The translations under genes and the position numbers were made by a program. Below, one piece after another: positions 21,421 through 38,211 of a stretch of 64,000 bases of DNA. Below the pieces are notes generated by a model. That model saw nothing but the letters and a program-made list of their open reading frames with translations, searched no databases and was not told the DNA's origin. The stretch is from Variovorax sp. DXTD-1 (GTDB taxonomy: Bacteria > Pseudomonadota > Gammaproteobacteria > Burkholderiales > Burkholderiaceae_C). The stretch lies in NCBI RefSeq assembly GCF_003984625.1, contig NZ_RWKH01000023.1, positions 1-64,000 on the forward strand. The letters run 5' to 3'. Position 1 is the first letter of the stretch; the number at the start of each line of letters is the position of its first letter.

Positions 21421-24596
<3,176 letters not shown>

Positions 24597-24731
24597 GGGC
24601 GGTGGACTTTCGGGGAATGTGGATTGGGGGGAACCCGCGATTTTACCGGGCTCGCTCCAACCCGCTCCAATACGGCCTGAACACCCGACTGATGTTCTTT
24701 GGCGACACCCGGACTGCTAGAGTTGCCACCC

Positions 24732-25112
24732 ATGCACGGGCTGCACCTCACCGCCGATCTCCACGACTGCCAATGCGCAATGCAATGGCTTACCGACAAG
24801 GAGGCGCTCGGCGCCGTGTGCCTGAAGGCCGTAACGGCCGCCGGGCTGCAGCCCGTGGGCAAGCTGGTGCACGGGTTTCCGGCCACGCCGCAGGGGCCGG
24901 GCGGCGTGACGGCCACGGTGCTGCTGGCCGAATCGCACCTGTGCATCCACACCTGGCCCGAACAGCGCGGCGCCACGCTCGACGTGTATGTGTGCAACTT
25001 CGGCGGAGACCATTCGACCAAGGCGCATGCGCTGATGGAATGCCTGGTAGCGCTGTTCCAACCCGGCCGCAGCGAACGAAACGAGCTGCTGCGCGGCAAG
25101 GTGGCGGCGTGA
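24732..25112 (+). CDS. speD: S-adenosylmethionine decarboxylase proenzyme (bacterial class 1b)
   Basis: Produces decarboxylated SAM, the aminopropyl donor for spermidine and related polyamines. At 126 residues it matches the short prokaryotic SpeH-type form. The self-cleavage site is AESHLCIHTWPE: Ser68 becomes the pyruvoyl cofactor after cleavage from Glu67, with His73 and neighbouring residues conserved. Its stop overlaps the GTG start of the murU-like gene. A canonical spermidine synthase is not adjacent, but a membrane-embedded aminopropyltransferase lies about 6 kb away at 31299-32858 and would use this product. Confidence 0.92.
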   Translation: MHGLHLTADLHDCQCAMQWLTDKEALGAVCLKAVTAAGLQPVGKLVHGFPATPQGPGGVTATVLLAESHLCIHTWPEQRGATLDVYVCNFGGDHSTKAHALMECLVALFQPGRSERNELLRGKVAA

Positions 25113-25849
25113 GCAGCGCCCCGGCTTCCGCGCGGGCGATGATCCTCGCCGCCGGCCGCGGCGAGCGCATGCGTCCGCTGACCGATACCACGCCCAAGCC
25201 GCTGCTCGAAGTGCGCGGCAAGCCGCTGATGCAATGGCCGATGGAAGCCCTGGCGGCCGGCGGATTCACCGACCTGGTGGTCAACACCGACTGGCTGGGC
25301 GAGCAGATTTACGCCCGCTTCGGCACCGAACCGCAGCTTGGCGAGCAGCTCGCGCTGTCAGTTTCGTATTCCGACGAAGGCCGCGACTTTGGCGGCGCGC
25401 TGGAAACGGCGGGCGGCATCGTGCGCGCACTGCCGCTGCTGGGCGATGTTTTCTGGGTGGCCGCGGGCGATGTGTTCGCGCCGGATTTCGCCTTCACACA
25501 GGCTTCGGTGGCGCGGTTCATGGCCAGCGGCAAGCTTGCGCACCTGTGGCTGGTGCCCAACCCGGCGCACAACCCGAAGGGCGATTTTGGCCTTTCGGCC
25601 GAAGGTCTGGCGCTCAATTCGGCGGCCGAGAAGTACACCTTCTCGACCATCGGCCTGTACCGGGCCGCGCTCTTTTCACCGCCTTACTGCAGCATTCCCG
25701 CCGGCAACCCGGCGGGCGTCAAAGCCCCGTTGGCACCGATCTTGCGCGCCGCGATGGACAATGAACTCGTGAGCGCCGAGCTCTACACCGGGCCATGGAC
25801 CGATGTGGGAACGCCCGAACGGCTTCTTCAATTGAACACGCCAAGATGA
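25109..25849 (+). CDS. murU: N-acetylmuramate-1-phosphate uridylyltransferase (MurU-type nucleotidyltransferase)
   Basis: Sugar nucleotidyltransferase of 246 residues that would make UDP-MurNAc from recycled MurNAc-1-phosphate and UTP, bypassing de novo MurA/MurB. The nucleotide-binding signature MILAAGRGERMRPLTDTTPKPL and the downstream DVFAPDF metal-binding Asp are clear; the length fits MurU rather than longer GlmU or RmlA. The GTG at 25109 overlaps the speD stop; an ATG at 25139 is an alternative that would start right at the signature. The partner kinase gene amgK is about 19 kb away here (44569), whereas in pseudomonads they are adjacent. A mannose-1-phosphate or glucose-1-phosphate transferase role is the alternative. 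Confidence 0.85.
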   Translation: MSSAPASARAMILAAGRGERMRPLTDTTPKPLLEVRGKPLMQWPMEALAAGGFTDLVVNTDWLGEQIYARFGTEPQLGEQLALSVSYSDEGRDFGGALETAGGIVRALPLLGDVFWVAAGDVFAPDFAFTQASVARFMASGKLAHLWLVPNPAHNPKGDFGLSAEGLALNSAAEKYTFSTIGLYRAALFSPPYCSIPAGNPAGVKAPLAPILRAAMDNELVSAELYTGPWTDVGTPERLLQLNTPR

Positions 25850-27240
25850 CCTCAGAAGACAACAAGATCTACGCCGAGCGCCGCGCGCGCCTCGCCTCGC
25901 AACTGGGCAAGGACGGCATCGCCATCGTCCCGACCGCGCCCGAGCGCCAGCGCAACCGCGACAGCGATTTCCTGTTCCGGCACGACAGCTACTTCTATTA
26001 CCTGACGGGCTTCACCGAACCGAACGCCTGGCTGGTGCTGGCGGGCGACGGCCGAAGCACGCTGTTCTGCGCCCCCAAGGACCTGGAGCGCGAGATCTGG
26101 GACGGCTACCGCCTGGGCCCCGATGCCGCGCCCGAGGCGCTCGGCGTGACAGAGGCCTTCTCTGTCAACGACCTTGACGCCAAGCTGCCCAAGCTGCTCG
26201 AGAACAGGTCGACCGTGTGGTTTCCGTTCGCCACCCACAAGGGACTCGAGACCCGCATCGACGGCTGGCTTCAATCGGTGCGTGCGCGCGTGCGCTATGG
26301 CGCGCTGTGCCCTCAGGAGCAGCACGACCTGTGCGGCCCGCTCGACGAAATGCGGCTGATCAAGGATGCGCACGAACAGGACATCATGCGGCGCGCCGCG
26401 CAGATCAGCGCCAGGGCGCACATTCGCGCGATGGAGCTTTCGGCGCGCATGCTGCGCGAGGGCAAGGACGTGCGCGAATACCACCTCGACGCCGAGCTGC
26501 TGCATGAGTTCCGCCTGGGCGGCTCGCAGTACCCGGCCTACGGCTCCATCGTGGCGGCGGGCGCCAATGCCTGCGTGCTGCACTACCGCGCCGATGCGGC
26601 CCCGGTGCGAAGCGGCGAGCTGGTGCTCATCGATGCCGGCTGCGAACTCGACGGCTACGCCAGCGACATCACGCGCACCTTTCCGGCCAACGGCAAGTTC
26701 AGCGGCCCGCAGCGCGCGCTGTACGACCTGGTGCTTGCCAGCCAGGACGCGTCGGCCGCGGCCACCAAGGCCGGCAACCGCTTCAACGACCCGCACGATG
26801 CGGCCGTGAAGGTGCTTGCGCAGGGCATGCTCGACCTGGGCCTGCTCGACGGCAACAAGGTCGGCAGCGTGGACGACGTGATCGACAACCGCGCCTACTT
26901 CCAGTTCTACATGCACCGCACCGGCCACTGGCTGGGCATGGACGTGCACGACTGCGGCAGCTACGTCGAGCCCACGCAGGTGGGCGAGGTGAGCGAACGA
27001 AAAGATCCGCTGTCCAATGAGGTCATCAAGAACCGGCCAAGCCGCATCCTGCATCCGGGCATGGTGCTGACGCTGGAACCCGGCATCTACGTGCGGCCCG
27101 CCGACGGGGTGCCCGAGCAGTTCCACAACATCGGCATCCGCATCGAGGACGACGCCATCGTCACGGCCACCGGCTGCGAGCTTATTTCGCGCGGCGTGCC
27201 GGTGAAGGCGGACGAGATCGAGGCACTGATGCGAGCTTGA
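25846..27240 (+). CDS. pepP: Xaa-Pro aminopeptidase (aminopeptidase P)
   Basis: Dimanganese cytosolic peptidase of 464 residues that removes an N-terminal residue before proline. The pita-bread fold is evident with metal ligands in DAGCELDGYASDITRTF (Asp pair), HRTGHWLGMDVHD (His), LEPGIYVRP (Glu) and RIEDD (Glu). The N-terminal creatinase-like domain spans about 1-175. The ATG at 25846 overlaps the murU stop (ATGA), so speD-murU-pepP reads as one operon. Its last 59 bases overlap the convergent LysR gene. Confidence 0.94.
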   Translation: MTSEDNKIYAERRARLASQLGKDGIAIVPTAPERQRNRDSDFLFRHDSYFYYLTGFTEPNAWLVLAGDGRSTLFCAPKDLEREIWDGYRLGPDAAPEALGVTEAFSVNDLDAKLPKLLENRSTVWFPFATHKGLETRIDGWLQSVRARVRYGALCPQEQHDLCGPLDEMRLIKDAHEQDIMRRAAQISARAHIRAMELSARMLREGKDVREYHLDAELLHEFRLGGSQYPAYGSIVAAGANACVLHYRADAAPVRSGELVLIDAGCELDGYASDITRTFPANGKFSGPQRALYDLVLASQDASAAATKAGNRFNDPHDAAVKVLAQGMLDLGLLDGNKVGSVDDVIDNRAYFQFYMHRTGHWLGMDVHDCGSYVEPTQVGEVSERKDPLSNEVIKNRPSRILHPGMVLTLEPGIYVRPADGVPEQFHNIGIRIEDDAIVTATGCELISRGVPVKADEIEALMRA

Positions 27241-28156
27241 CCGCCCGCTGAGACACCGGCGGCGGCACATGCCGCGCCTGCAGGAAGTCGATGAACACCC
27301 GCAGCTTGCGCGGTATCTGCGCCGAGCTCGGGTGATAGAGGTAGAAGCCCGGAAAGGTCGGCCACCAGGGCTCGAGCAGCGGAACCAGCCGGCCGCTGTC
27401 GAGATCGCCGCGCACCGAGCCTTCGAAAGCCACCGCAATGCCCGCGCCGTCGCGCGCGGCGGCCAGCAGCACGTCGCCGTCGTTGCTGATCAGCGGGCCG
27501 GCCACTTCGACGTCGAGCACGCGGCCGTCCTGCGCGTACTCCCACCGATAAAGGCCGCCCGTGGTCAGGCGGTAGTTCATGCATTGGTGTTCGCGCAGGT
27601 CTTCGGGCGTCTTCGGCAGCTGGCGTTTCGCAAGGTAGCGCGGCGACGCAACAGTCACCATGCGCTGCGGCCCGCCCATGGGCAACGCCACCACGTCTTG
27701 CGCCAGGCTTTCGCCAAGCCGGATGCCCGCATCGAAGCCGCCTTCGATCAGATCGACCATGCGGTTGTCGCACACCAGTTCGAGCGTGATGTCGGGAAAC
27801 GCTTCGGCAAAGTCCCCCAAGTGCGGATACAGCAGAAGCTCGGCCGACGCGCGCGCAACGTTCAGCCGCAGCAGCCCGGCCGGCTTGTCGCGCGCCTCGT
27901 TGATGCCTTCGACCGTTTGCGCGAGCGCGGCAAGCGCCGGCTGCGCACCCTTCAGCAGTTGCTGGCCCAGCTCGGTCACGCCCACGCGGCGCGTGGTGCG
28001 GTCGAGCAGGCGCACACCCAGCCGCCGCTCGAGCGTGCGCAAGGTCTGCGACAGCGCCGAAGGCGAGACGCCCAGCTCTTCCGCCGCCCGCGTGAAGCTG
28101 GCGTGGTGCGCAACGCGTGCGAAGGCGGCAATGGCGGGAAGCAGTTCGGGCGACAT
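27182..28156 (-). CDS. LysR family transcriptional regulator
   Basis: 324-residue regulator with an N-terminal winged helix (FARVAHHASFTRAAEELGVS, then TLRTLERRLGVRLLDRTTRR) and an effector domain. The C-terminus is arginine/proline-rich. Its 3' end overlaps the end of pepP by 59 bases on the opposite strand, both frames being coding there. It lies downstream of, and co-directional with, the phytase-like esterase gene, 33 bases away, so its target is not obvious from divergence. Confidence 0.88.
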   Translation of the reverse strand: MSPELLPAIAAFARVAHHASFTRAAEELGVSPSALSQTLRTLERRLGVRLLDRTTRRVGVTELGQQLLKGAQPALAALAQTVEGINEARDKPAGLLRLNVARASAELLLYPHLGDFAEAFPDITLELVCDNRMVDLIEGGFDAGIRLGESLAQDVVALPMGGPQRMVTVASPRYLAKRQLPKTPEDLREHQCMNYRLTTGGLYRWEYAQDGRVLDVEVAGPLISNDGDVLLAAARDGAGIAVAFEGSVRGDLDSGRLVPLLEPWWPTFPGFYLYHPSSAQIPRKLRVFIDFLQARHVPPPVSQRAVKLASVPRSRPPSPARRAK

Positions 28157-28189
28157 GCGCCCGATTATCGAGACCGCGGCAGACCCCGG

Positions 28190-29542
28190 CTACTTTGCCT
28201 GCAGCAACGCCCCCGCTTCGAGCAGCACCAGCTCGTTGTCGTCCGCCTTGTTCGGCTCGCGGCTGCTGGAGAACGGCAGGTTGTTGTCGTTGCCCACCAC
28301 GATGTGCGTGGCGTCGACCACATCGACGTTCTCGATGGTGAAGAACGGGAACTTGAGCACACCCTCGTTCAGCGGCTTGCGCGCGAGCCTGGCCGGGTCG
28401 GCGATGTTCAGCAGGTCGATGTAGCCGATCTTGCGCACCGCGCCGCCCACGTTGGCGTCGTTCAGCTCGACCTTGTAGACGCGCTTGAACTTGGCGATGT
28501 CGTGGAAGCAGTCGGTGCGCTTCTGGCCTTCGGGGCAGGCCTTGTCGTTGGTGCCTTCGCCGTTGTCGCGCTCGATGATGAGGCCCGTGGCGCCATCGAT
28601 CATGTTGAAGTCGCCGATGGCATGGCCGTTGGCTTCGAGCACGTAGTGCCAGTGGCGGCCGGTCCATTTTTCGGAGGCCACGTCGAACTCCAGCACGCGC
28701 AATGCTTCCTTGCCGTCCTGTTTCTCGTAGTCCTTGGCCTCCGCGTTCCACACCGGGCCTTCGAGCAGCGCATAGAGCTTGCTGCCGTCTTTCGACGCCG
28801 CCATGCCTTCGAAGCCCTTGGAGCGCTTGACCTGGAACTCGACCGCGCCACCTGGTGCACCCGGCGTCGTTACCGCGGGATGGTCCGGCGAACGAACGGC
28901 CTTGCCGCCCACCAGCGTGTCGAACACCGCGAGCACCTTGCCCTTCAGGCCGGCCTTGATCAGGAAGGGACCGAACTCATCGCCGATCCACATCGCGCCG
29001 CCGGCAAACTGCAGGCTCTCGGGGTCGAAGTCGGAACCCGTGAGGTAGCGCTGCTTCGTGCCTTCATGAACGATGCGGAAGGGCACTTTCTTGTCGGGGT
29101 CGTGCAGGAAGACGGTCTCGAGGCGGTTGAACTTGCCGCTCTTGAAGTCCACCTTGTAGTGGTTCAGGTAGAGCATGAAGTCCGGCGAATTGGCCTTGGC
29201 GCCCGCACCGTTGTCGGTAAGGACCCAGAACGAGCCATCGTCCATCTTCTTGATGCCCGAATGGCCCTGCAGCGGCTGGCCCTTGAAAGGCACCGAAACG
29301 CCCGTGCCGCGCCCGCCCGAGAGGCCTTCCACAGTGCCCGGCGCCTCCGCCCGCTTGCCCGTGGTGAACTTGCCGCTCACGTGCAGATCGGCCGGCGCGT
29401 CTTTGGGCGCCGCAACGAAGCTCTGCGCGGGCAGCACGGCATGGCCGGCGAGCGTGGCGGGAAAAGCGGTCTGTGCGGCGGCATGGCCGCAAGTAAATGC
29501 GGCGGCAAGGGCGATGAAGGAGAGAGAAGCGATGCGCGTCAT
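28190..29542 (-). CDS. Secreted esterase-like/phytase-like protein
   Basis: 450-residue exported protein with a signal peptide (IASLSFIALAAAFTCGHAAA). It belongs to the esterase-like activity of phytase family: a beta-propeller-type fold with EGLSGGRGTGV, MDDGSFWVLTDNGAGAKANS, EFGPFLIK and FEGMAASKDGSKLYALLEG motifs. The family name comes from weak esterase activity of a phytase-related protein; the true substrate is unknown. The ATG at 29542 fits the signal peptide better than a longer frame upstream. It is separated by 76 bases from the flavoprotein operon and might be its last gene. Confidence 0.85.
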   Translation of the reverse strand: MTRIASLSFIALAAAFTCGHAAAQTAFPATLAGHAVLPAQSFVAAPKDAPADLHVSGKFTTGKRAEAPGTVEGLSGGRGTGVSVPFKGQPLQGHSGIKKMDDGSFWVLTDNGAGAKANSPDFMLYLNHYKVDFKSGKFNRLETVFLHDPDKKVPFRIVHEGTKQRYLTGSDFDPESLQFAGGAMWIGDEFGPFLIKAGLKGKVLAVFDTLVGGKAVRSPDHPAVTTPGAPGGAVEFQVKRSKGFEGMAASKDGSKLYALLEGPVWNAEAKDYEKQDGKEALRVLEFDVASEKWTGRHWHYVLEANGHAIGDFNMIDGATGLIIERDNGEGTNDKACPEGQKRTDCFHDIAKFKRVYKVELNDANVGGAVRKIGYIDLLNIADPARLARKPLNEGVLKFPFFTIENVDVVDATHIVVGNDNNLPFSSSREPNKADDNELVLLEAGALLQAK

Positions 29543-29618
29543 GAGAGCAAGAAGAAAGGCTTCAGTCGAAACGCGAGACCATGCCGATTGCGCGTGACGC
29601 GGCCATGACATGCAGCGT

Positions 29619-29684
29619 TCAGAACTGGAGCGAAGGCTTGTTCATCATCAGCCGGGACACGGCCAGTGCGGCGAAGATCTTCAT
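29619..29684 (-). CDS. Tiny ORF coupled to the flavin amine oxidase gene
   Basis: 21-residue ORF (MKIFAALAVSRLMMNKPSLQF) that starts with ATGA overlapping the stop of the FAD oxidoreductase gene. It is hydrophobic at its N-terminus like a short membrane peptide. It could be a real leaderless small protein, or a remnant of a longer gene lost here, or chance. I could not match it to a family. Confidence 0.25.
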   Translation of the reverse strand: MKIFAALAVSRLMMNKPSLQF

Positions 29685-31291
29685 GCGGCGTCCATGCCCG
29701 CAACGTGCCCACGCGTGAAGGCTTCTTCAAAGATCGAGTAGCCCGACCAGTCCGCATGCGCGAACGAGAGGCGCCCGGCGGCAACGTCGCCGCGGTGCGC
29801 CGCACCGAGCCGTGCCAGCAGGCCCGGCGTTGGAATGGCCATGGCGTGGCCGTAGCGGGTGATCTCGACGTGCGTGGCCAGCTCCGGCAGGTCCGGGTGC
29901 GGCACCGAGAGCTCGGCGAGCAGATCGTCCCGCCATCCGGTCCAGGGGCGGTCCTGCAGCAGGCGGCGGCCGTCGGCCGTGTCGTAGCTGCTCGGGCCAA
30001 GCGGCCGGTACCAACTGATGACGGTGCTGCGCGGCGTGGGATCGAGCGTCTGGTGGCGCGCATCGACGTACCCCAGGCCGCGTGTGCCGTACACGACGTT
30101 GTCCCAGCTCGGCGCTGCGCCGGGACGGTCGGCAAGCGGGCCGCTCAGGTGCACGTTGGCGACCAGCCAGGGCGCATGGCGCGTGTGCGCGGCGGCATTG
30201 CGCAGTACCTCCGGTGCGTTCTCGACGATGCGGGCGGCGATGAACACCGGCAGCGCGACGATGCAGCGCTCGGCCTGCCAGCGCACCAGCGATTTTGTTT
30301 TCGCGTCCCATGCGTCGACCTCGACGCCGCCGCGCAGATCGGCGATGCGCGTGACGACCTGGCCCGTACGCAGCCGGTCGCCAAGTGGCTCGGCGAGCCG
30401 CTTCGTGAGCCAGCCGTTGCCCTCGGGCCAGGTGAGAACGCCGTCGCGTTCGGGGTTCGAATCGGCACCGGTGCCCGATGAACCCGGCGCGTGAAACCCG
30501 TGCCGGCTTGCGAAGTAGTGGATGCCGGCCCAGGCCGAAACGTGGGCGATGCCGGCGCCATAGTCGTCGCGGCAGCAGTAGTCGAGGTACCAGCGCAGTT
30601 GCGGATCGCTGAAGCCTTCGCTGTCGAGCCAGCGCTCGAACGGAACGGCGTCGAGCGCGAGCAGCTCGGGGGTTGCCGCCACCTTGAGCGTGGGAATGGC
30701 GAAATGCGCCGCGTGTTGCAGCGCATCGATCCGCTTTGCGAACTTGCGGTACTGCGCATGGGTGCTCTCGCCGACGTCGTTCACGGGCAGAAGGCCGTCC
30801 TGCCACTCGCCGCGAAAGAACAAACGCTCCTGCGGGCTATGGCAAAGGCTGCGCTCGTCGTATTCCCAGCGGCCGGCCACGCGGCGGCGCAGGCCGAGTT
30901 CCTCGAGCAGGTCTTGCACCTCGCGTGCGTTGTCGTCGGGCACCGGCAGGTAATGTGCGCCCAGCGGGCAGGCAATGCCGTTGACCATGCCGGAGCGGGA
31001 GTTGCCGCCGGCCGTGTCTTCGAGTTCGAGCAGGGCGAAGTCTTCGATGCCCGAAAGCCGCAAGGCTCGCGCCGCGGCAAGGCCTGCAACGCCGCCTCCG
31101 GCGATGACCACGCGCGTGCGCTTCACGGTTGCGGGGGCCTGGCTCTTGAGCGCGCCGTCGCGCATGGCGTGGCCTCGCGCCATGTCGATGCCGGTGAAGC
31201 CGCCTTCGATGATTGGCTGCGGCGCCTCGCAGCCCGCGAGGGCAAAGGCGCCCGCCGCACCCACTGCACCGAGAAAATCGCGCCGCTGCAT
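29681..31291 (-). CDS. Lipoprotein-type flavin amine oxidase-like oxidoreductase
   Basis: 536-residue FAD protein with an export signal that has a twin-arginine-like start (MQRRDFLGAVGAAGAFALAGC); the lipobox LAGC would lipidate Cys21 and place the enzyme at the membrane. After it comes a flavin-binding domain, VVIAGGGVAGLAAARAL at about 61-77 and LEDTAGGNSRSG, characteristic of amine oxidases. The C-terminus (IFEEAFTRGHVAGMDAA) contacts the flavin in this family. It is 7 bases downstream of the aminopropyltransferase gene, so a polyamine-type product of that enzyme is a likely substrate. Other amino oxidases cannot be ruled out. Confidence 0.82.
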   Translation of the reverse strand: MQRRDFLGAVGAAGAFALAGCEAPQPIIEGGFTGIDMARGHAMRDGALKSQAPATVKRTRVVIAGGGVAGLAAARALRLSGIEDFALLELEDTAGGNSRSGMVNGIACPLGAHYLPVPDDNAREVQDLLEELGLRRRVAGRWEYDERSLCHSPQERLFFRGEWQDGLLPVNDVGESTHAQYRKFAKRIDALQHAAHFAIPTLKVAATPELLALDAVPFERWLDSEGFSDPQLRWYLDYCCRDDYGAGIAHVSAWAGIHYFASRHGFHAPGSSGTGADSNPERDGVLTWPEGNGWLTKRLAEPLGDRLRTGQVVTRIADLRGGVEVDAWDAKTKSLVRWQAERCIVALPVFIAARIVENAPEVLRNAAAHTRHAPWLVANVHLSGPLADRPGAAPSWDNVVYGTRGLGYVDARHQTLDPTPRSTVISWYRPLGPSSYDTADGRRLLQDRPWTGWRDDLLAELSVPHPDLPELATHVEITRYGHAMAIPTPGLLARLGAAHRGDVAAGRLSFAHADWSGYSIFEEAFTRGHVAGMDAA

Positions 31292-31298
31292 GCCGGGG

Positions 31299-32858
31299 CT
31301 AGTGCGTCATAACCTTGCCCCACTCCTGTTCGTAAGTGGTGACGAGAGTCTGGTTCGACAGGCGGTTGACCTCGGCCGGCACACGCGCCATATCGAGCGG
31401 AAAGTCGAACATCAACGGCAATGTCGAAGGTGCCAGGAAACGCAGTCCGGAAGGCAGCGCATCCGGCATGCGGTACGGGCGGCGGCTGGCGATGATGTAG
31501 CCCCACTCGCCGAAGCTCGGCACGTGCGCGTGGTAGGGCGTGGCCTTCAGGCCGACCGATTCGATGGTGGTCGCGACGGTCCAGTAGCTCTTGCGCGCCA
31601 CCAGCGGCGAGGTGGTCTGGATCACCGCATAGCCGCTCGCGGAAAGACGCTTTTCGAGCAGCGAATAGAAGCTGTTGGTGTAGAGCTTGCCGATGGCGAA
31701 GTTGGTCGGGTCGGGAAAGTCCACCACGATGACGTCGAACATGTCTCCGGGTTGCTGCAGCCACTGGAAGGCGTCGGTGTTGACGACCTTCACCTTGGGG
31801 GACGACAGCGCATGGCCGTTGAGCGCAGCCAGCGTTTCATGTCCGGTAAAAAGCTGGGTCATGTTCGGATCGAGCTCCACCAGCGTGACCGATTCGACCG
31901 AGGGGTACTTGAGAATCTCGCGCACCGCCATGCCGTCGCCACCGCCGAGCACCGCCACTTTCTTCGGTGCGCCGTGCGCGGCCATTGCCGGGTGAACGAG
32001 TGCCTCGTGATAGCGGTATTCGTCGCGCTCGGCGAACTGCAGGTTGCCGTTCAGGAACAGCCGGTGCCCGAGCTGCCCGCGCGTGACCACGATCCGCTGG
32101 TAGGGCGAACTGGCGCTGAACACGATGTGGTCCTGGTAGAACTTGTCTTCGGCCAACGTGGTGATGTGGTCGGCCCACACAAAGGCGCCGAGCAGCGCCG
32201 CGAGCGAAAGAAAGCAAGCCAGCGCATGAGCACCCATGCGGCGCAGTTCATGGCGAAACAGCCACAGCGCCCACACGGCCACGGCCGCGTTCATGAAGCC
32301 GAACAGCAGACCGGTGCGGATCATGCCGAGCTGCGGCACCAGGATGAGCGGAAAAGCCACCGACACCGCCAGCGCCCCGAGGTAGTCGAAGGTGAGCACC
32401 TGCGACACGAGGTTCTTGAGCTGGATGTTGCGCTTGAGGATGCGCATCACGAGCGGTATCTCGAGCCCCACCAGCGTGCCCACCACCATCACGAGGCCGT
32501 AGAGCAGCAGGCGGAACGCGCCGGGCACATAGGCGTTGGCCAGGAAAAGAATGGCTGGCAGCGCACCGCCGATGAGCGCGACGAGCAACTCGATGCGAAG
32601 GAAATGCGCGGGCAGCTGCCGCTCGAAATAGCGCGAGAGCCACGAGCCGACGCCCATGGCGAACAGGTAGGTGCCGATGATGGTGCTGAACTGCAGCACC
32701 GAATCGCCGAGCAGGTAGGAGCTCAGCGCGGCCGCGGTCAGTTCATAGACCAGGCCGCAGGCGGCCACCACGAACACGCTGGCAAGCAGCGCAATTTCAA
32801 CGGGCTGCGGCCCCTTGGCCGGCGGCGCCGGACTGGCAGGAGCATCCACGGAAGCCAA
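31299..32858 (-). CDS. Membrane-embedded polyamine aminopropyltransferase (spermidine synthase-like, N-terminal TM domain)
   Basis: 519-residue fusion: about seven hydrophobic segments in residues 20-225, then a spermidine-synthase-type domain. The transferase part has YRYHEALVHPAM (substrate-binding YHE), LGGGDGMAVREILKY (decarboxylated-SAM binding), ELDPNM and VVDFPDPTN. Soluble SpeE ends near 290 residues; the extra N-terminal membrane domain puts this enzyme in the bilayer. The donor would be the product of SpeD (24732). It is 7 bases from the DUF350 gene and 7 from the flavoprotein gene, all on one strand. The acceptor is not known. Confidence 0.88.
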   Translation of the reverse strand: MASVDAPASPAPPAKGPQPVEIALLASVFVVAACGLVYELTAAALSSYLLGDSVLQFSTIIGTYLFAMGVGSWLSRYFERQLPAHFLRIELLVALIGGALPAILFLANAYVPGAFRLLLYGLVMVVGTLVGLEIPLVMRILKRNIQLKNLVSQVLTFDYLGALAVSVAFPLILVPQLGMIRTGLLFGFMNAAVAVWALWLFRHELRRMGAHALACFLSLAALLGAFVWADHITTLAEDKFYQDHIVFSASSPYQRIVVTRGQLGHRLFLNGNLQFAERDEYRYHEALVHPAMAAHGAPKKVAVLGGGDGMAVREILKYPSVESVTLVELDPNMTQLFTGHETLAALNGHALSSPKVKVVNTDAFQWLQQPGDMFDVIVVDFPDPTNFAIGKLYTNSFYSLLEKRLSASGYAVIQTTSPLVARKSYWTVATTIESVGLKATPYHAHVPSFGEWGYIIASRRPYRMPDALPSGLRFLAPSTLPLMFDFPLDMARVPAEVNRLSNQTLVTTYEQEWGKVMTH

Positions 32859-32865
32859 GCAGGCG

Positions 32866-33084
32866 CTAATGGATCGCCGCGGCCACGATGACGCAGATGC
32901 CCAGACTCATGGCCGCGACCACCAGCCCCAGCGCGACGTTCTGCTTCTCGACGATCTCGCCCCACAAATCGTAGGGGGTGAGCTTGTCGATGATCAGGAA
33001 GCAGAGCCAGAAGATCAGCACGCCAAGCAGCGCATACACGAGCGATCCGAGGACCACGCCCGGTTTCAGCCATTCAAATCCCAT
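32866..33084 (-). CDS. DUF350 family small membrane protein
   Basis: 72-residue protein with two transmembrane segments, VVLGSLVYALLGVLIFWLC (about 9-27) and ALGLVVAAMSLGICVIVAAA (about 51-70), joined by a short charged loop. This is the DUF350/UPF0719 family (related to YjfL), often encoded next to polyamine or glutathionylspermidine-type enzymes. It may form an oligomeric membrane module with the aminopropyltransferase. Function is unestablished. It lies 57 bases after the DUF4178 gene and 7 before the next. Confidence 0.87.
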   Translation of the reverse strand: MGFEWLKPGVVLGSLVYALLGVLIFWLCFLIIDKLTPYDLWGEIVEKQNVALGLVVAAMSLGICVIVAAAIH

Positions 33085-33141
33085 GGGGACCTCCAGTCGT
33101 AGTAGCAGTAGTGAGAGAAGACATCGCGCGAAACCCCGCCG

Positions 33142-34641
33142 TCATTTGTGGCCGCCGCCGCTCGAGTAGCCGCCGTACGAGCCGCCCGTGCTGCGCGAAC
33201 TCGAACAGTTTTGCACGCGCGGGTCGCAGCGCGACGAACAGGTGCTCAGGATGATGAGCACAACGATGACGATGATCACGATGAAGATGATGGTGCCGCA
33301 GCCCATGCCCGACGCAGCGCTGACGGGCAGTGCGTCGCCGCGCACGAACATGTCCTTCTTGTCGTCGAGCTTGAACGCGGCGGACACCGCGCCGCTGTCG
33401 AGCTTGCTGCCCGAAGACCAGGTCAGCTCGTTGGCCGAGCGCTCCATCGACAGCAGCGCATTGCCGCTGGCGAAGTCGCGGTTGAAGGTTTTCTGCCCGC
33501 GCTCCACCTGCCAGTAGAACTCGCCGGCCACATAGGTGGTCTCGGCGTTGTAGGCGTATTGCTGGGTGTAGCGCTTGCCAAGATAGCTGGCGCTGCTGCC
33601 GTTCTCGGCCATGACGGGCGCGCCGGTGGTCGGCTTGACCATGCTCCAGCCGTCTTCGGCGTCGACCAGGAAGCTGAAGCCGCGCTTCTTGTTGTACAGC
33701 AGGTACTCGCTCCAGCCGAAGTGCTCGTCGTCGCCGGGCTCGGTGCCCATGCGATGCTGGAAGCCCACCACCTGCCACTGCGCGCCCTGCAGCTGGCCCA
33801 CGCTGCCGATGGCGATGAGCGGCCGAACGGGTTCGTTCTGCTCCGCGTGCTTCAGCTCGCCGCCGATGCCTTGCGACAGGTCGATGATGCTGTTGCAAGA
33901 GCCGCAGGTAATGCTCTTGCTGTCGGCCAGGTTGACGGTAACGGGCGCGCCGCAATTGGGGCAGTTGAAGGCGCGGCCTTTTTCTTCCTTGGCGGATTCG
34001 TCGCGCAGGCCGGTGAGCTGCAGGTCTTCAAGCTGTACCGAGCGGCCCAGGTGCGCGCCGGGAGGCTGCGTGCTGTAGTCGAGGCTGAGCACCAGGCCGT
34101 TGCCGCTGCGCAGCTCGACCATGGGGAACGAGCGGCCCAGTTCCGGCAGATGCGAGAGCTCGCCCTGCGCGGAAAGCAGCGCCACCTGTTCGTTCGACGA
34201 CACGGTGTAGCTCTGGCCGTTGAAGGCGCTGGTGGCGCCCACGCGCAGGTCGGTCGGCGGCGGCGCGGCGCGCTGCAGTTCGAGCGGCAGCGCAAAGACA
34301 TAGGCACCGTTGTCCTCGCTCAGGATGCCGGCGCGGCCGTCTTCGAGCGCGGCGATCCATTCGGTCCAGCGACCGCCCGGATGGCTGTATTGCAGCCGCC
34401 CGACGATGGTGAACGGCTGGTCCTGGATGCGGCCCGCGGCAAGCAGCTGCAGCGGGCTGAAGTCGTCGAACAGCTCCGCCATCTTGCCGATGCGCGCGAG
34501 CGTGTCGCCCTGGCGCACGACGGTGCTCTGGCAATACGGGCACACCGCATGCGTCGATTGCGCGGAACGGAATTCGACCGGTGCGCCGCAGCCAGGGCAG
34601 GGCGCACGGTAGGCGCGCTGGGCGCCTGGTTGCTCAGCCAT
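33142..34641 (-). CDS. DUF4178 protein with two zinc ribbons and a C-terminal membrane anchor
   Basis: 499-residue protein with a duplicated structure. Each half begins with a zinc ribbon: CPGCGAPVEFRSAQ with CPYC at about 15-38, and CPNCGAPVTVNLADSK with CGSC at about 228-252. Beta-rich DUF4178 domains follow each, one at about 55-195 and one at about 280-420. One hydrophobic helix (GTIIFIVIIVIVVLIILS, about 447-464) anchors it, followed by a Cys/Ser/Gly-rich tail. DUF4178 proteins recur with SPFH, DUF350 and spermidine-synthase genes but no function is proven. It follows the SPFH gene by 9 bases. Confidence 0.87.
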   Translation of the reverse strand: MAEQPGAQRAYRAPCPGCGAPVEFRSAQSTHAVCPYCQSTVVRQGDTLARIGKMAELFDDFSPLQLLAAGRIQDQPFTIVGRLQYSHPGGRWTEWIAALEDGRAGILSEDNGAYVFALPLELQRAAPPPTDLRVGATSAFNGQSYTVSSNEQVALLSAQGELSHLPELGRSFPMVELRSGNGLVLSLDYSTQPPGAHLGRSVQLEDLQLTGLRDESAKEEKGRAFNCPNCGAPVTVNLADSKSITCGSCNSIIDLSQGIGGELKHAEQNEPVRPLIAIGSVGQLQGAQWQVVGFQHRMGTEPGDDEHFGWSEYLLYNKKRGFSFLVDAEDGWSMVKPTTGAPVMAENGSSASYLGKRYTQQYAYNAETTYVAGEFYWQVERGQKTFNRDFASGNALLSMERSANELTWSSGSKLDSGAVSAAFKLDDKKDMFVRGDALPVSAASGMGCGTIIFIVIIVIVVLIILSTCSSRCDPRVQNCSSSRSTGGSYGGYSSGGGHK

Positions 34642-34650
34642 TGCCGGTGC

Positions 34651-35700
34651 TTAGACCAGCTTCTTGAGCAGCTCCGCCTTCTTGGCGTCGAACTCTTCCT
34701 GCGTGAGGATGCCCTTGGTCTTGAGCTCGCCGAGCTTCTCGAGCGTGGTCATGACATCGTTCGGGCTCACCACGGCAACAGCGGGCTGCTGCTGGGTTGC
34801 CGCAGCCTGCGCCGCTGCGTTGGGGCTCAGGCCCTGCGCGAGGTTTTGCGCCAGCACCTGGCCGAGCGCCACGCCGGCACCCAGCCCCATGGCGTCGCCC
34901 GCAATGCCGCCGCCGTTGGCAGCGCCTTCGGCGAACTTGGGAATGGCTTGCGCCGTCTGGTACTGCATGAACTTGCCCATGTCGTTGCCGACCATGCCCA
35001 TGCCGATCTTCTGGTCGAGGATCTTCTGCAGCTCTTCGGGCAACGAGACGTTCTGGACCGTGATGTTCTCGAGCTTGATGCCGATCTTCTCGAACTCGGG
35101 CACCAGCTGCGCGGCCAGCGCCTGCGCAAACTGGATCTGGTTGGCCGCCAGGTCGAGAAAGGGCACGCCGCTGGAGGCAATGGCGTTGCTGATGTTCTGC
35201 AGCACCAGGCCGCGCAGCTGGCCGTCGAGATCGGCCACGCTGTAGATGTCGCGCGTGCCGGAAATCTCGGTGTGGAACAGCTTGGCATCGCCGATGCGGA
35301 ACGAGTAGTTGCCGAAGGCGCGCAGGCGCACGGCGCCGAAGTCCTTGTCGCGGATGGTGATGGGCTGCGGCGTGCCCCACTTCTGATCGACCTGCTGGCG
35401 CGTGCTGAAGAAATAGACGTCGCTCTTGAAGGGGGATTCGAAGAGCTTGTCCCAGTTCTTGAGGTACGTGAGCACGGGCAGCGTCTGCGTCGTGAGCTTG
35501 TACATGCCGGGGCCGAACACGTCGGCCACCTGGCCTTCGTTGACGAACACGGCCACCTGGGACTCGCGCACGGTGAGCGAGGCGCCGTTCTGGATTTCCA
35601 TCTCGGCCATGGGGAAGCGCCAGGCCAGCGTACCGTCTCCAGACTCGGTCCACTGGATGATGTCGATGAACTGTTTCTTGATGAAATCCATCAGGGCCAT
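34651..35700 (-). CDS. SPFH domain protein with C-terminal SHOCT domain
   Basis: 349-residue protein. The central SPFH (Band 7) domain spans about 20-235 (AEMEIQNGASLTVRESQVAV through LENITVQNVSLPEE), a membrane-scaffold fold shared by flotillins and stomatin; an Ala/Gln/Gly-rich linker follows, and the end is a SHOCT segment (LGELKTKGILTQEEFDAKKA). No transmembrane helix is obvious, so association with membranes would be peripheral. The ATG at 35700 is preceded by GAGGAG. It is the first gene of the operon and divergent from maeB. The likely role is to organise a membrane microdomain for the enzymes encoded downstream. Confidence 0.88.
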   Translation of the reverse strand: MALMDFIKKQFIDIIQWTESGDGTLAWRFPMAEMEIQNGASLTVRESQVAVFVNEGQVADVFGPGMYKLTTQTLPVLTYLKNWDKLFESPFKSDVYFFSTRQQVDQKWGTPQPITIRDKDFGAVRLRAFGNYSFRIGDAKLFHTEISGTRDIYSVADLDGQLRGLVLQNISNAIASSGVPFLDLAANQIQFAQALAAQLVPEFEKIGIKLENITVQNVSLPEELQKILDQKIGMGMVGNDMGKFMQYQTAQAIPKFAEGAANGGGIAGDAMGLGAGVALGQVLAQNLAQGLSPNAAAQAAATQQQPAVAVVSPNDVMTTLEKLGELKTKGILTQEEFDAKKAELLKKLV

Positions 35701-35868
35701 GGCCGCTCCTCGTCGAGTTTTTTTACAGACTGCGCATATTGCCACATCGCCTTGACAGGCCGGCGTGCTTTCGGCAAGGCCCATACCCCGCCATACCGGC
35801 CCATGGCGTCATGGGCCGAGGTCTACAATCGGCGCCCCCAGAAGAAGCGCCACCAGGAGCAACGGCCC

Positions 35869-38211
35869 ATGTCCGATTTGACGACCTCATCGACCCCTAC
35901 GCCCGAAGACAAGCGCGCCGAACTGCGGCGCGCCGCCCTCGAGTACCACGAGCTTCCGGTGCCCGGCAAGATTGCCATCGCCGCCACCAAGCAGATGGTG
36001 AACCAGCGCGACCTGTCGCTGGCCTATTCGCCCGGCGTGGCCGCGCCTTGCGAGGAAATCGTCAAGGATCCGGCCAACGCCTTCAAGTACACGGCGCGCG
36101 GCAACCTGGTGGCGGTGATCACCAACGGCACCGCGGTGCTCGGCCTGGGCGACATCGGCGCGCTGGCTTCCAAGCCGGTGATGGAAGGCAAGGGCGTTCT
36201 CTTCAAGAAGTTTGCCGGTGTCGACGTGTTCGACATCGAGATCGACGAAAAAGACCCGGTCAAGCTGGTCGAGATCATCGCCTCGCTGGAGCCGACCTTC
36301 GGCGCCATCAACCTGGAAGACATCAAGGCCCCGGACTGCTTCTACGTCGAGCGCGAGCTGCGCAAGCGCATGAAGATTCCGGTGTTCCACGACGACCAGC
36401 ACGGCACGGCCATTACCGTGGCGGCGGCCATGCTCAACGGCCTGAAGGTGGCGGGCAAGGACATCACCGAGGTCAAGCTGGTCACCTCCGGCGCGGGCGC
36501 TGCGGCGCTGGCTTGCCTGAACCTGCTGCTCAAGGTGGGCCTGAAGCGCGAGAACGTGTTCGTCACCGACCTGGCCGGCGTGGTCTATGAGGGCCGCGAA
36601 GAGCTGATGGACGACGACAAGCGCCAGTACATGCAAAAAACCACGGCCCGCACGCTGGCCGAGGTGATCGACGGTGCCGACGTGTTCCTGGGCCTGTCGG
36701 CCGGCGGGGTGCTCAAGCCTGCCATGGTGGCCAAGATGGCCCCCCGCCCGGTGATCTTCGCGCTGGCCAACCCGAACCCGGAAATCGCGCCCGAAGACGC
36801 CCATGCGGTGCGCCCTGACGTGATCATGGCCACGGGCCGCACCGACTACCCGAACCAGGTCAACAACGTTCTGTGCTTCCCGTACATCTTCCGCGGCGCG
36901 CTCGATTCGGGCGCCACCACGATCACCGACGAGATGGAAATTGCCGCGGTGCGCGCCATTGCCGACCTGGCGCAGGCCGAGCAGAGCGAGCGCGTGGCGG
37001 CCGCCTACGTCGGCGAAAAGCTGTCTTTCGGCCCTGAATACCTGATTCCGAAGCCCTTCGATCCGCGGCTGATGATGAAGATCGCACCCGCAGTGGCCAA
37101 GGCCGCCGAGGAAAGCGGTGTGGCATCGCGTCCCATCAAGGACATGGACGCCTACCGCGACCGCCTGCAGAGCTTCGTCTATGCCTCGGGCACCACGATG
37201 AAGCCGATCTTCGACGCCGCCAAGCGGGCGCAGAAGAAGCGCGTGGCGTACTGCGAAGGCGAGGAAGAGCGCGTGCTGCGCGCCGCGCAGATCGTGGTCG
37301 ACGAAGGCATTGCCCGCCCGACGCTGATCGGCCGCCCGGCCATCATTGCGCAGCGCATCGAGAAGTTCGGCCTGCGCCTGAAGGAAGAGCTCGACTACGA
37401 CATCGTCAACGTCGAGCAGGACCACCGCTACCGCGACTTCTGGCAGACCTACCACCGCATGACGGAGCGCAAAGGCCAGACGGTGCAAACCGCCAAGATC
37501 GAGATGCGCCGCCGCCTGACGCTGATCGGCGCCATGCTGCTGCACAAGGACGAGGTCGACGGCATGATCTGCGGCACCTGGGGCACCACGCTGATCCACC
37601 TGCACTACATCGACCAGGTGATCGGCAAGCGCCCGGGCGGCTGCGAAAGCACCCCGCAGGACGTGCCGGTGTACGCCTGCATGAACGGCCTGCTGCTGCC
37701 CGACCGCCAGGTGTTCCTGGTCGACACCCACGTCAACTACGACCCCTCGCCCGAGGAACTGGCCGAAATCACGACCATGGCGGCGGAGGAGATGATGCGT
37801 TTCGGCCTCAAGCCCAAGGCTGCGCTGTTGTCGCACTCCAACTTCGGCACCAGCAACGAGCCCAGCGCGGTCAAGATGCGCAAGACGCTCGACCTGCTGC
37901 GCGTGCAGGCACCCTGGCTCGAAGTGGACGGCGAAATGCACGGCGACGTGGCGCTCGACAGCAAGCAACGCGCGGTCGTCATGCCGCACAGCGCGCTCGC
38001 GGGCGACGCCAATCTGTTGGTTTTTCCGAACATCGACGCAGCCAATATTTCTTACAACCTGCTCAAAACTGCGGCAGGCGGAAATATCGCCATCGGCCCG
38101 GTTCTGCTCGGCGCCGCCAAACCTGTGCACATTCTCACGGCCAGCGCAACCGTTCGGCGCATCGTGAACATGACAGCCTTGACAGTCGCTGACGCAAACG
38201 CAGAGCGATAG
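35869..38211 (+). CDS. maeB: NADP-dependent malic enzyme with C-terminal phosphotransacetylase-like domain
   Basis: Oxidative decarboxylase converting malate to pyruvate with NADP reduction, 780 residues. The malic-enzyme core covers about 1-430: [15 protein letters not shown] (active-site Tyr/Lys region), [29 protein letters not shown] and [14 protein letters not shown] for NADP. The C-terminal about 340 residues resemble phosphotransacetylase and probably regulate or oligomerise rather than catalyse. The ATG at 35869 has AGGAG about 9 bases upstream; TACAAT at 35824-35829 is a candidate -10. A much longer frame reaching upstream is noise from antisense coding of the SPFH operon. Confidence 0.95.

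What the first reader, a model, noticed from the sequence alone, without database searches (positions are those of the whole stretch)
29619..35700. Membrane polyamine operon: SPFH-DUF4178-DUF350-aminopropyltransferase-flavin oxidase
Five genes, one strand, gaps of 7-57 bases: a flotillin-like SPFH/SHOCT protein, a zinc-ribbon double-DUF4178 protein with a membrane anchor, a two-helix DUF350 protein, a spermidine-synthase domain fused to a seven-helix membrane domain, and a lipidated amine oxidase-like flavoprotein. Domain contents imply that an aminopropyl group is transferred at the membrane and the product then oxidised, with a microdomain scaffold organising it. These domain neighbourhoods are known from comparative genomics, but I know of no described biochemistry.
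Basis: partly seen in the sequence, partly recalled or inferred. Interest (0 to 1): 0.85.

Follow-up and report, generated by a model that had tools for sequence, protein, structure and literature searches.

The report
Membrane aminopropyltransferase operon, perhaps outward-facing
Bacteria of this group carry a conserved gene set built around a membrane-bound relative of spermidine synthase; the set was already known, but its sequence suggests that the enzyme part faces outside the inner membrane, where it may modify something other than ordinary polyamines.

Summary
The five genes are there as described: one strand, gaps 9, 57, 7 and 7 bases, Variovorax-like genome. They co-occur far beyond chance: in 100 genomes of the order, the 7TM-aminopropyltransferase fusion, DUF4178 and the flavoprotein were found in the same 14. 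dcAdoMet-site and catalytic acids are invariant, so the fusion is probably active; acceptor-side positions differ from soluble spermidine synthases (Tyr to Phe at 449).

The cluster is not new (Ravi 2024), and negative biochemistry exists: homologues are reported not to make spermidine or spermine (Li 2019, as cited in PMC12803844). The flavoprotein lacks the usual flavin-site lysine and was found in only 5 of 26 wider clusters, so 'product then oxidised' is weak.

My addition is topology. Charge bias in 47 of 47 fusions puts the N-terminus inside; seven spans then put the transferase domain in the periplasm, beside the Tat-exported flavoprotein. Best reading: outward-facing aminopropylation of an envelope molecule, with dcAdoMet crossing through the membrane domain. 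Topology is inferred, cysteine evidence is mixed, the acceptor unknown.

The parts
34651..35700 (-). SPFH/Band_7_1 protein with C-terminal SHOCT domain (ATG at 35700; the open frame runs back to 35784)
   Evidence: next to the fusion in 11 of the 14 order genomes that have it
33142..34641 (-). Protein with two zinc ribbons, two DUF4178 domains and a C-terminal membrane helix; probably cytoplasmic
32866..33084 (-). Half-length DUF350 (YjfL-like) two-helix membrane protein, 72 aa
   Evidence: full 4-helix form in 8 of the 14 order genomes, half form in 6
31299..32858 (-). Fusion: 7-helix membrane domain plus aminopropyltransferase domain (NF002956/PRK03612 family)
32178..32804 (-). Membrane domain of the fusion, residues 19-227, seven helices, charge bias N-in
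31479..32129 (-). Aminopropyltransferase domain, residues 244-460, with GGGDG (D308), D362, D380, D383
29681..31291 (-). FAD flavoprotein of the amine-oxidase fold with Tat/lipobox start (residues 1-21)
24699..25112 (+). AdoMet decarboxylase (SpeD, class 1b type), the only one in the genome; not in the same transcript here but in the same gene run in several relatives

Best explanation
The cluster encodes a dcAdoMet-dependent envelope-modifying unit. Steps: (1) SpeD decarboxylates AdoMet in the cytoplasm (inferred from family). (2) dcAdoMet passes through the 7-helix, half-MFS-like domain of the fusion (inference, no test). (3) The C-terminal aminopropyltransferase domain, on the periplasmic side, moves the aminopropyl group to an acceptor other than putrescine: a lipid head group, a lipoprotein or another envelope molecule (side inferred from charge bias; donor chemistry from conserved residues; acceptor unknown). 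(4) In some lineages a Tat-exported flavoprotein acts on the same side (location from its signal; reaction unknown). (5) DUF350, the DUF4178 protein and the SPFH/SHOCT protein, or PspA in other lineages, hold the unit at the membrane and tie it to envelope stress (inference from gene context).
For: Donor: D308, D362, D380, D383, Q254, Y283, H284 and Q414 are invariant in 94 of 94 fusions (14 order genomes plus 80 mostly close loci); D308, D362 and D380 in 47 of 47 of a wider set and D383 in 46. AdoMetDC occurs in exactly the 32 of 100 order genomes that have the fusion or a soluble SpeE, and 13 of the 14 fusion genomes showed no soluble SpeE at E 1e-20; it is within 10 kb of the fusion in 9 of 14. 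Acceptor change: F449 in 94 of 94 and 46 of 47 fusions, Tyr in 18 of 18 soluble SpeE; N270 in 94 of 94 and 38 of 47, Asp in 18 of 18. Side: mean K+R per loop 1.96, 4.07 and 2.93 (2-3, 4-5, 6-7) against 0.00, 0.02 and 1.12 (1-2, 3-4, 5-6) in 94 sequences, TM7 as hydrophobic as TM5 and TM6; 47 of 47 wider sequences have more K+R in the first kind of loop. The flavoprotein carries Tat and lipobox motifs in 89 of 99 sequences checked. Transferase domain nearly free of cysteine: 0.13 per 100 aa against 0.94 in 18 soluble SpeE.
Against: A periplasmic transferase needs dcAdoMet outside the cytoplasm, for which I found no precedent in bacteria. TM7 could lie at the surface; I could not see model coordinates. 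Cysteine content is not a clean marker: the SPFH protein, which I take to be cytoplasmic, has 0.03 per 100 aa, the exported flavoprotein 1.00, and a cytoplasmic enzyme in the window (KsgA) none. The sequences are related, so counts are not independent. The membrane domain had no PDB match at E 0.001 or better; MFS-like matches are weak. Two Comamonadaceae are reported to contain spermidine (PMC9628874, PMC5015223, passages); whether they carry the cluster was not tested.
Confidence: 0.42

Rival explanations
1. Cytoplasmic-face aminopropylation: TM7 is interfacial, the transferase domain stays inside and modifies a membrane-embedded acceptor (lipid or protein), which may then be flipped outward by the membrane domain.
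For: dcAdoMet is made inside; fits the published wording of a 7TM transporter-like domain fused to a spermidine-synthase domain (PMC11237479, section 19 read).
Against: TM7 is as hydrophobic as TM5 and TM6 and follows a positively charged loop; 47 of 47 sequences keep the bias; near-absence of cysteine in the domain, itself mixed evidence.
Confidence: 0.27
2. It makes an ordinary or unusual free polyamine (spermidine, thermospermine or norspermidine) at the membrane, and the exported flavoprotein converts it on the surface, as has been proposed for P. aeruginosa SpeE2 and its Tat-exported spermidine dehydrogenase.
For: It is the only strong aminopropyltransferase of this genome; the only PF00278 protein is LysA, so no carboxyspermidine decarboxylase of that family was found; spermidine is reported in two Comamonadaceae; the SpeE2-SpdH proposal is in PMC11107197 (passages).
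Against: PMC12803844 (passages) says bacterial homologues were shown to be uninvolved in spermidine or spermine biosynthesis; the score for the spermidine-synthase model is 153.8, under its cut-off 249.55; acceptor-side changes.
Confidence: 0.13
3. It is an AdoMet methyltransferase acting on exported proteins, like the fungal enzyme NHMT, which has the same 7TM plus spermidine-synthase-like layout.
For: Same layout, ER residence and secreted substrates in A. nidulans (PMC10349129; abstract, sections 9, 10, 12 and passages).
Against: NHMT has Ile in place of the Asp/Glu of GxG(D/E)G; here Asp is kept in 94 of 94 and 47 of 47; strict company of AdoMet decarboxylase. The paper's BLAST found the fungal 7TM only in fungi; I did not compare it with the bacterial one.
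Confidence: 0.1
4. The domain is a catalytically dead ligand sensor of a PSP-like envelope-stress complex.
For: Gene company: PspA beside the fusion and DUF350 in two distant loci; SPFH here; the published PSP link.
Against: Invariant donor and catalytic acids.
Confidence: 0.08

Closest known systems
Second operon group of Ravi et al. 2024 (PMC11237479): 7TM-spermidine-synthase fusion, DUF350, DUF4178, lipoprotein, CesT/Tir-PspA
   Same: Fusion, DUF350 and DUF4178 in one cluster; PspA is beside fusion and DUF350 in loci L178 and L188.
   Different: No PspA or CesT/Tir in this operon; SPFH/SHOCT and an exported flavoprotein instead. The paper describes a related variant with band-7/SHOCT, AdoMet decarboxylase and polyamine oxidase, so the difference is one of combination.
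Membrane protein-SpdSyn fusions with AdoMetDC and DUF350 (Li et al. 2019, Biochem J; not held)
   Same: Same fusion type and same decarboxylase link, as far as I recall the abstract and as cited.
   Different: Their work, as cited, shows no spermidine or spermine synthesis; no acceptor known to me. Full text not seen.
NHMT (AN4663) of Aspergillus nidulans (PMC10349129)
   Same: Seven-helix membrane domain, then a spermidine-synthase-like domain; acts on exported substrates.
   Different: Methyl transfer from AdoMet, Ile instead of Asp in the donor motif; sequence homology of the membrane domains not tested here.
Soluble spermidine/thermospermine synthases (e.g. 1uir, 6bq2)
   Same: Fold and donor site.
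   Different: Membrane domain, F449, N270, low score for the SpeE model.
Flavin amine oxidases such as Rhodococcus-type putrescine oxidase (2yg6)
   Same: FAD fold, 45.8 bits over residues 60-382.
   Different: Asn where the lysine lies; exported.

Membership tests
NF002956 / PRK03612 polyamine aminopropyltransferase (membrane fusion) | Score over curated cut-off across membrane and transferase parts | tested here: met
   690.6 bits, cut-off 472, residues 19-515
Spermidine synthase SpeE (TIGR00417) | Score over curated cut-off | tested here: not met
   153.8 bits, cut-off 249.55
Aminopropyltransferase active site | Asp/Glu in GxG(D/E)G and the Asp-x-x-Asp catalytic pair | tested here: met
   D308, D380, D383 in 94 of 94; 47, 47 and 46 of 47. 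Motif role from PMC10349129 section 9 and PMC11107197 passages; catalytic role of the Asp pair recalled
Aminopropyltransferase activity | Transfer from dcAdoMet | not testable with these tools
   needs biochemistry
AdoMet decarboxylase (TIGR03330) | Score over curated cut-off | tested here: met
   80.3 bits, cut-off 75.65; PF02675 88.7 bits
Flavin amine oxidase (PF01593) | Profile score and FAD motif | tested here: met
   60.6 bits, cut-off 19.8; GxGxxG region in the sequence
Flavin amine oxidase (PF01593) | Lysine facing flavin N5 (role recalled) | tested here: not met
   Aligned position is N379; Asn in 92 of 97, no Lys
PSP-linked polyamine operon (Ravi group 2) | 7TM-spermidine-synthase fusion with DUF350 and DUF4178 | tested here: met
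PSP-linked polyamine operon (Ravi group 2) | CesT/Tir-PspA pair in the operon | tested here: not met
   None among the window's five genes; the rest of the genome was not searched for PspA
NHMT-type methyltransferase | Loss of the Asp/Glu in GxG(D/E)G | tested here: not met
   Asp kept
Flotillin-type microdomain scaffold | SPFH domain | tested here: met
   Band_7_1 261.5 bits
Flotillin-type microdomain scaffold | Residence in ordered membrane microdomains | not testable with these tools
   needs cell biology; the relative YdjI resides in fluid regions (PMC8581546, abstract)

The most novel reading that the evidence does not exclude
A widespread bacterial system performs aminopropyl transfer outside the cytoplasm: the half-MFS-like membrane domain passes dcAdoMet to a periplasmic spermidine-synthase-like domain that decorates an envelope molecule, making dcAdoMet an exported group donor. 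This would be a bacterial counterpart of the exported-substrate enzyme NHMT of fungi, but with an aminopropyl group.
Probability: 0.38. Interest if true: 0.82.

Novelty: new member of a known kind. Interest (0 to 1): 0.5.

Why it matters
Genes annotated as spermidine synthase in many Pseudomonadota (44 of 398 phylum genomes had this fusion at E 1e-60) may not make polyamines at all. If the transferase faces the periplasm, AdoMet-derived chemistry happens outside the cytoplasm in bacteria, which would need a route for dcAdoMet and would point to an unknown envelope modification. The question becomes testable with one topology reporter and one lipid or surface mass search for +57.058 Da.

Tried and rejected
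Phytase-like neighbour as a sixth gene: rejected, 5 of 80 loci. Classical spermidine synthesis as the first choice: disfavoured. Dead enzyme: disfavoured. Cysteine depletion as proof of export: withdrawn as proof, since the SPFH protein is as poor in cysteine and the exported flavoprotein is not. Promoter scan found none; eight terminator-like sites against 4.1 expected, none used. No Rfam match in 24000-36500. PADLOC gave one partial match of the fusion to mad2 (52.2 bits), read as general Rossmann-domain likeness. Paper searches for an aminopropylated lipid or a periplasmic or membrane-bound spermidine synthase (listings, open-licence library only) showed no bacterial report; Li et al. 2019 was not held, so I cannot say whether it discusses the side of the membrane. 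Limits of counts: my profiles came from Burkholderiales and missed DUF350 and DUF4178 genes annotated in L170 and a DUF4178 match in L178, so one search gives lower bounds; in the flavoprotein search some genomes had more than 14 candidates of which 14 were scored; four of 103 flavoproteins were dropped for want of a FAD-motif match and the set holds some genes twice; in the 47-sequence set one gene (L153 and L178) is counted twice. Homospermidine synthase, fold-I ornithine decarboxylase and PspA were not searched for in the genome.
Full report
OBSERVATION. The five genes lie on the minus strand as reported, with gaps of 9, 57, 7 and 7 bases. Pfam confirms the domains. The genome is close to Variovorax: the nearest of 80 related loci, Variovorax sp. 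770b2, has 96% identity over the fusion (records very near the window may be left out there).

THE MISSING DONOR GENE. The genome has one AdoMet decarboxylase match, at window 24744-25097 on the plus strand (gene 24699-25112), 4.6 kb beyond the end of the flavoprotein gene. It passes the curated model TIGR03330 (80.3 bits, cut-off 75.65). Besides the fusion, the genome has one other Spermine_synth match, only just over cut-off (23.2 against 22.9 bits); its protein lacks the GGGDG motif and misses every NCBIfam aminopropyltransferase cut-off shown. DUF350 also occurs once. The single PF00278 protein is LysA.

CO-OCCURRENCE. In 100 genomes drawn from the order, the fusion was found in 14, DUF4178 in the same 14, and the flavoprotein (E 1e-20) in the same 14. 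DUF350 over cut-off occurs in 22 (the 14 plus 8, five of these with a soluble SpeE), Band_7_1 over cut-off in 23 (the 14 plus 9). AdoMetDC occurs in 32, exactly the genomes with the fusion or a soluble SpeE. Only one of the 14, G093, also has a soluble SpeE, in an open frame that matches both SpeD and SpeE. Three families (f1, f3, f8) hold both genomes with fusion, DUF4178 and flavoprotein and genomes with none of the three, so the genes come and go together. The hypergeometric value for the exact match is 2.3e-17, without correction for relatedness. Linkage is looser: the flavoprotein is on another contig in G077 and G032, Band_7_1 lies away from the fusion in G021, G068 and G093, and AdoMetDC is within 10 kb in 9 of 14.

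CLOSE RELATIVES. Of 80 loci, 77 had DUF350, 76 DUF4178, 75 the flavoprotein, 61 SPFH and 23 AdoMetDC within the stretch held; many stretches are cut by contig ends. AdoMetDC was found in 22 of the 66 loci with at least 8.9 kb downstream. Of the genes around this copy, malic enzyme occurs in 25 and the phytase-like gene in 5 of 80.

WIDER RELATIVES. Of 398 genomes of the phylum, 44 have the fusion at E 1e-60. In 26 wider loci (lower bounds) I found the fusion in 26, DUF350 in 22, AdoMetDC in 12, DUF4178 in 11, SPFH in 6 and the flavoprotein in 5. SPFH, two DUF4178 genes, DUF350, fusion, flavoprotein and AdoMetDC form one codirectional run in G314 and G122 (L174, L175), and the same set is found on a Novosphingobium plasmid (L167); a Gemmatirosa plasmid has the set too, with an AdoMetDC match nearby (L166). 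An Alteromonas plasmid has the fusion and speD 25 bases apart, with DUF4178 and DUF350 annotated downstream. PspA lies near the fusion and DUF350 in L178 and L188. In L178 and L185 a two-helix protein lies between DUF350 and the fusion, with positive ends and about 130 residues between its helices; L178's has relatives in other loci. So the core is fusion, DUF350 and AdoMetDC, often with DUF4178; the flavoprotein is an addition of some lineages.

ACTIVE SITE. Against 18 soluble aminopropyltransferases (17 from the order genomes, one from E. coli) and in 94 fusions, the donor and catalytic residues Q254, Y283, H284, D308, D362, D380, D383 and Q414 are invariant; position 328 is Glu in 80 and Asp in 14. 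Two positions set the fusions apart: N270 (94 of 94; soluble Asp 18 of 18) and F449 (94 of 94; soluble Tyr 18 of 18). In the wider 47 F449 holds in 46 and N270 in 38 (8 Asp, 1 Gly); the exception at 449 is a haloarchaeal protein with 24% identity that also lacks D383. That the Tyr of this motif binds putrescine is recalled, not tested. Loss of the active site is therefore not seen, and a changed acceptor is plausible.

TOPOLOGY. The model of the fusion (14 sequences, mean pLDDT 84.6, pTM 0.70) has seven long helices and then the transferase domain; a model of the membrane part alone (38 sequences) reaches pLDDT 91.6 and pTM 0.88. In 94 sequences the mean number of K+R is 3.68 at the N-terminus, 1.96, 4.07 and 2.93 in loops 2-3, 4-5 and 6-7, and 0.00, 0.02 and 1.12 in loops 1-2, 3-4 and 5-6; after TM7 it is 1.31 with 3.74 acidic residues. 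In 47 of 47 wider sequences the sum is larger for loops 2-3, 4-5 and 6-7. By the positive-inside rule the N-terminus is inside, and seven crossings put the transferase outside. Foldseek finds no PDB match to the membrane part at E 0.001 or better; weak matches are ZIP transporters (TM-score 0.23 at the top) and many MFS transporters (TM-score 0.45-0.59). The full model matches aminopropyltransferases (1uir, E 1.9e-17). Cysteine content is mixed evidence: 0.13 per 100 aa in 47 fusion domains against 0.94 in 18 soluble enzymes and 0.04 against 0.93 in the membrane part of the same 94 proteins, but the SPFH protein has 0.03 and the exported flavoprotein 1.00.

FLAVOPROTEIN. Of 99 sequences checked, 89 have a twin-arginine motif followed by a lipobox-like Cys and 10 a twin-arginine only (permissive patterns; sphingomonad forms lack the Cys). 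The best PDB relative is putrescine oxidase (45.8 bits), whose lysine aligns with N379; 92 of 97 sequences have Asn there and none has Lys. It is an exported FAD enzyme of unknown substrate.

LITERATURE. Ravi et al. 2024 (PMC11237479; section 19 read, other passages) describe operons of a 7TM-spermidine-synthase fusion with DUF350, DUF4178 and PspA, and variants with band-7/SHOCT, AdoMet decarboxylase and polyamine oxidase. PMC12803844 (passages) states that bacterial homologues of a fungal membrane fusion were shown to be uninvolved in spermidine or spermine synthesis, citing Li et al. 2019, which is not held. PMC10349129 (abstract, sections 9, 10, 12, passages) describes a fungal ER enzyme with the same layout that methylates secreted proteins; it does not use the word lumen, so a lumenal active site is my inference. 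PMC11107197 (passages) proposes a periplasmic oxidation of thermospermine in P. aeruginosa. PMC10407285 and PMC11999265 were seen as passages only and added nothing on this fusion. PMC9628874 and PMC5015223 (passages) report spermidine in two Comamonadaceae, which I count against my reading.

VERDICT. A real, conserved unit of known kind. What is new here is the decarboxylase next to it, the measured co-occurrence, the acceptor-side signature and, above all, the outward-facing reading of the transferase, which is an inference that one reporter experiment can settle.

Noticed in passing
L172 (G464) and L173 (G474), fusion genes: Same-genus and same-family copies of the fusion have extra residues near position 355 of the transferase domain (the match breaks at 355-357 within one open frame).
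   Followed up: no
L035-L047 and window 32866-33084: DUF350 is half-length (two helices) in six of the 14 order genomes and full-length in eight; distant loci have about 280-300 aa forms.
   Followed up: partly
order genomes G083, G059, G022, G069: DUF350 also lies within a few kb of soluble speDE genes in genomes without the fusion.
   Followed up: no
L166 4585-6492 and L178 8283-8912: The second DUF4178 gene of Gemmatirosa weakly matches (E 1.2e-5) the two-helix protein that lies before the fusion in L178.
   Followed up: partly
L171: A haloarchaeal plasmid encodes a distant fusion relative followed by DUF2617, the partner named for actinobacterial variants in PMC11237479.
   Followed up: no
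C1:228792-229049 of the genome (L002): A small spermidine-synthase-like protein without the GGGDG motif, best NCBIfam match NF003380 under its cut-off.
   Followed up: partly
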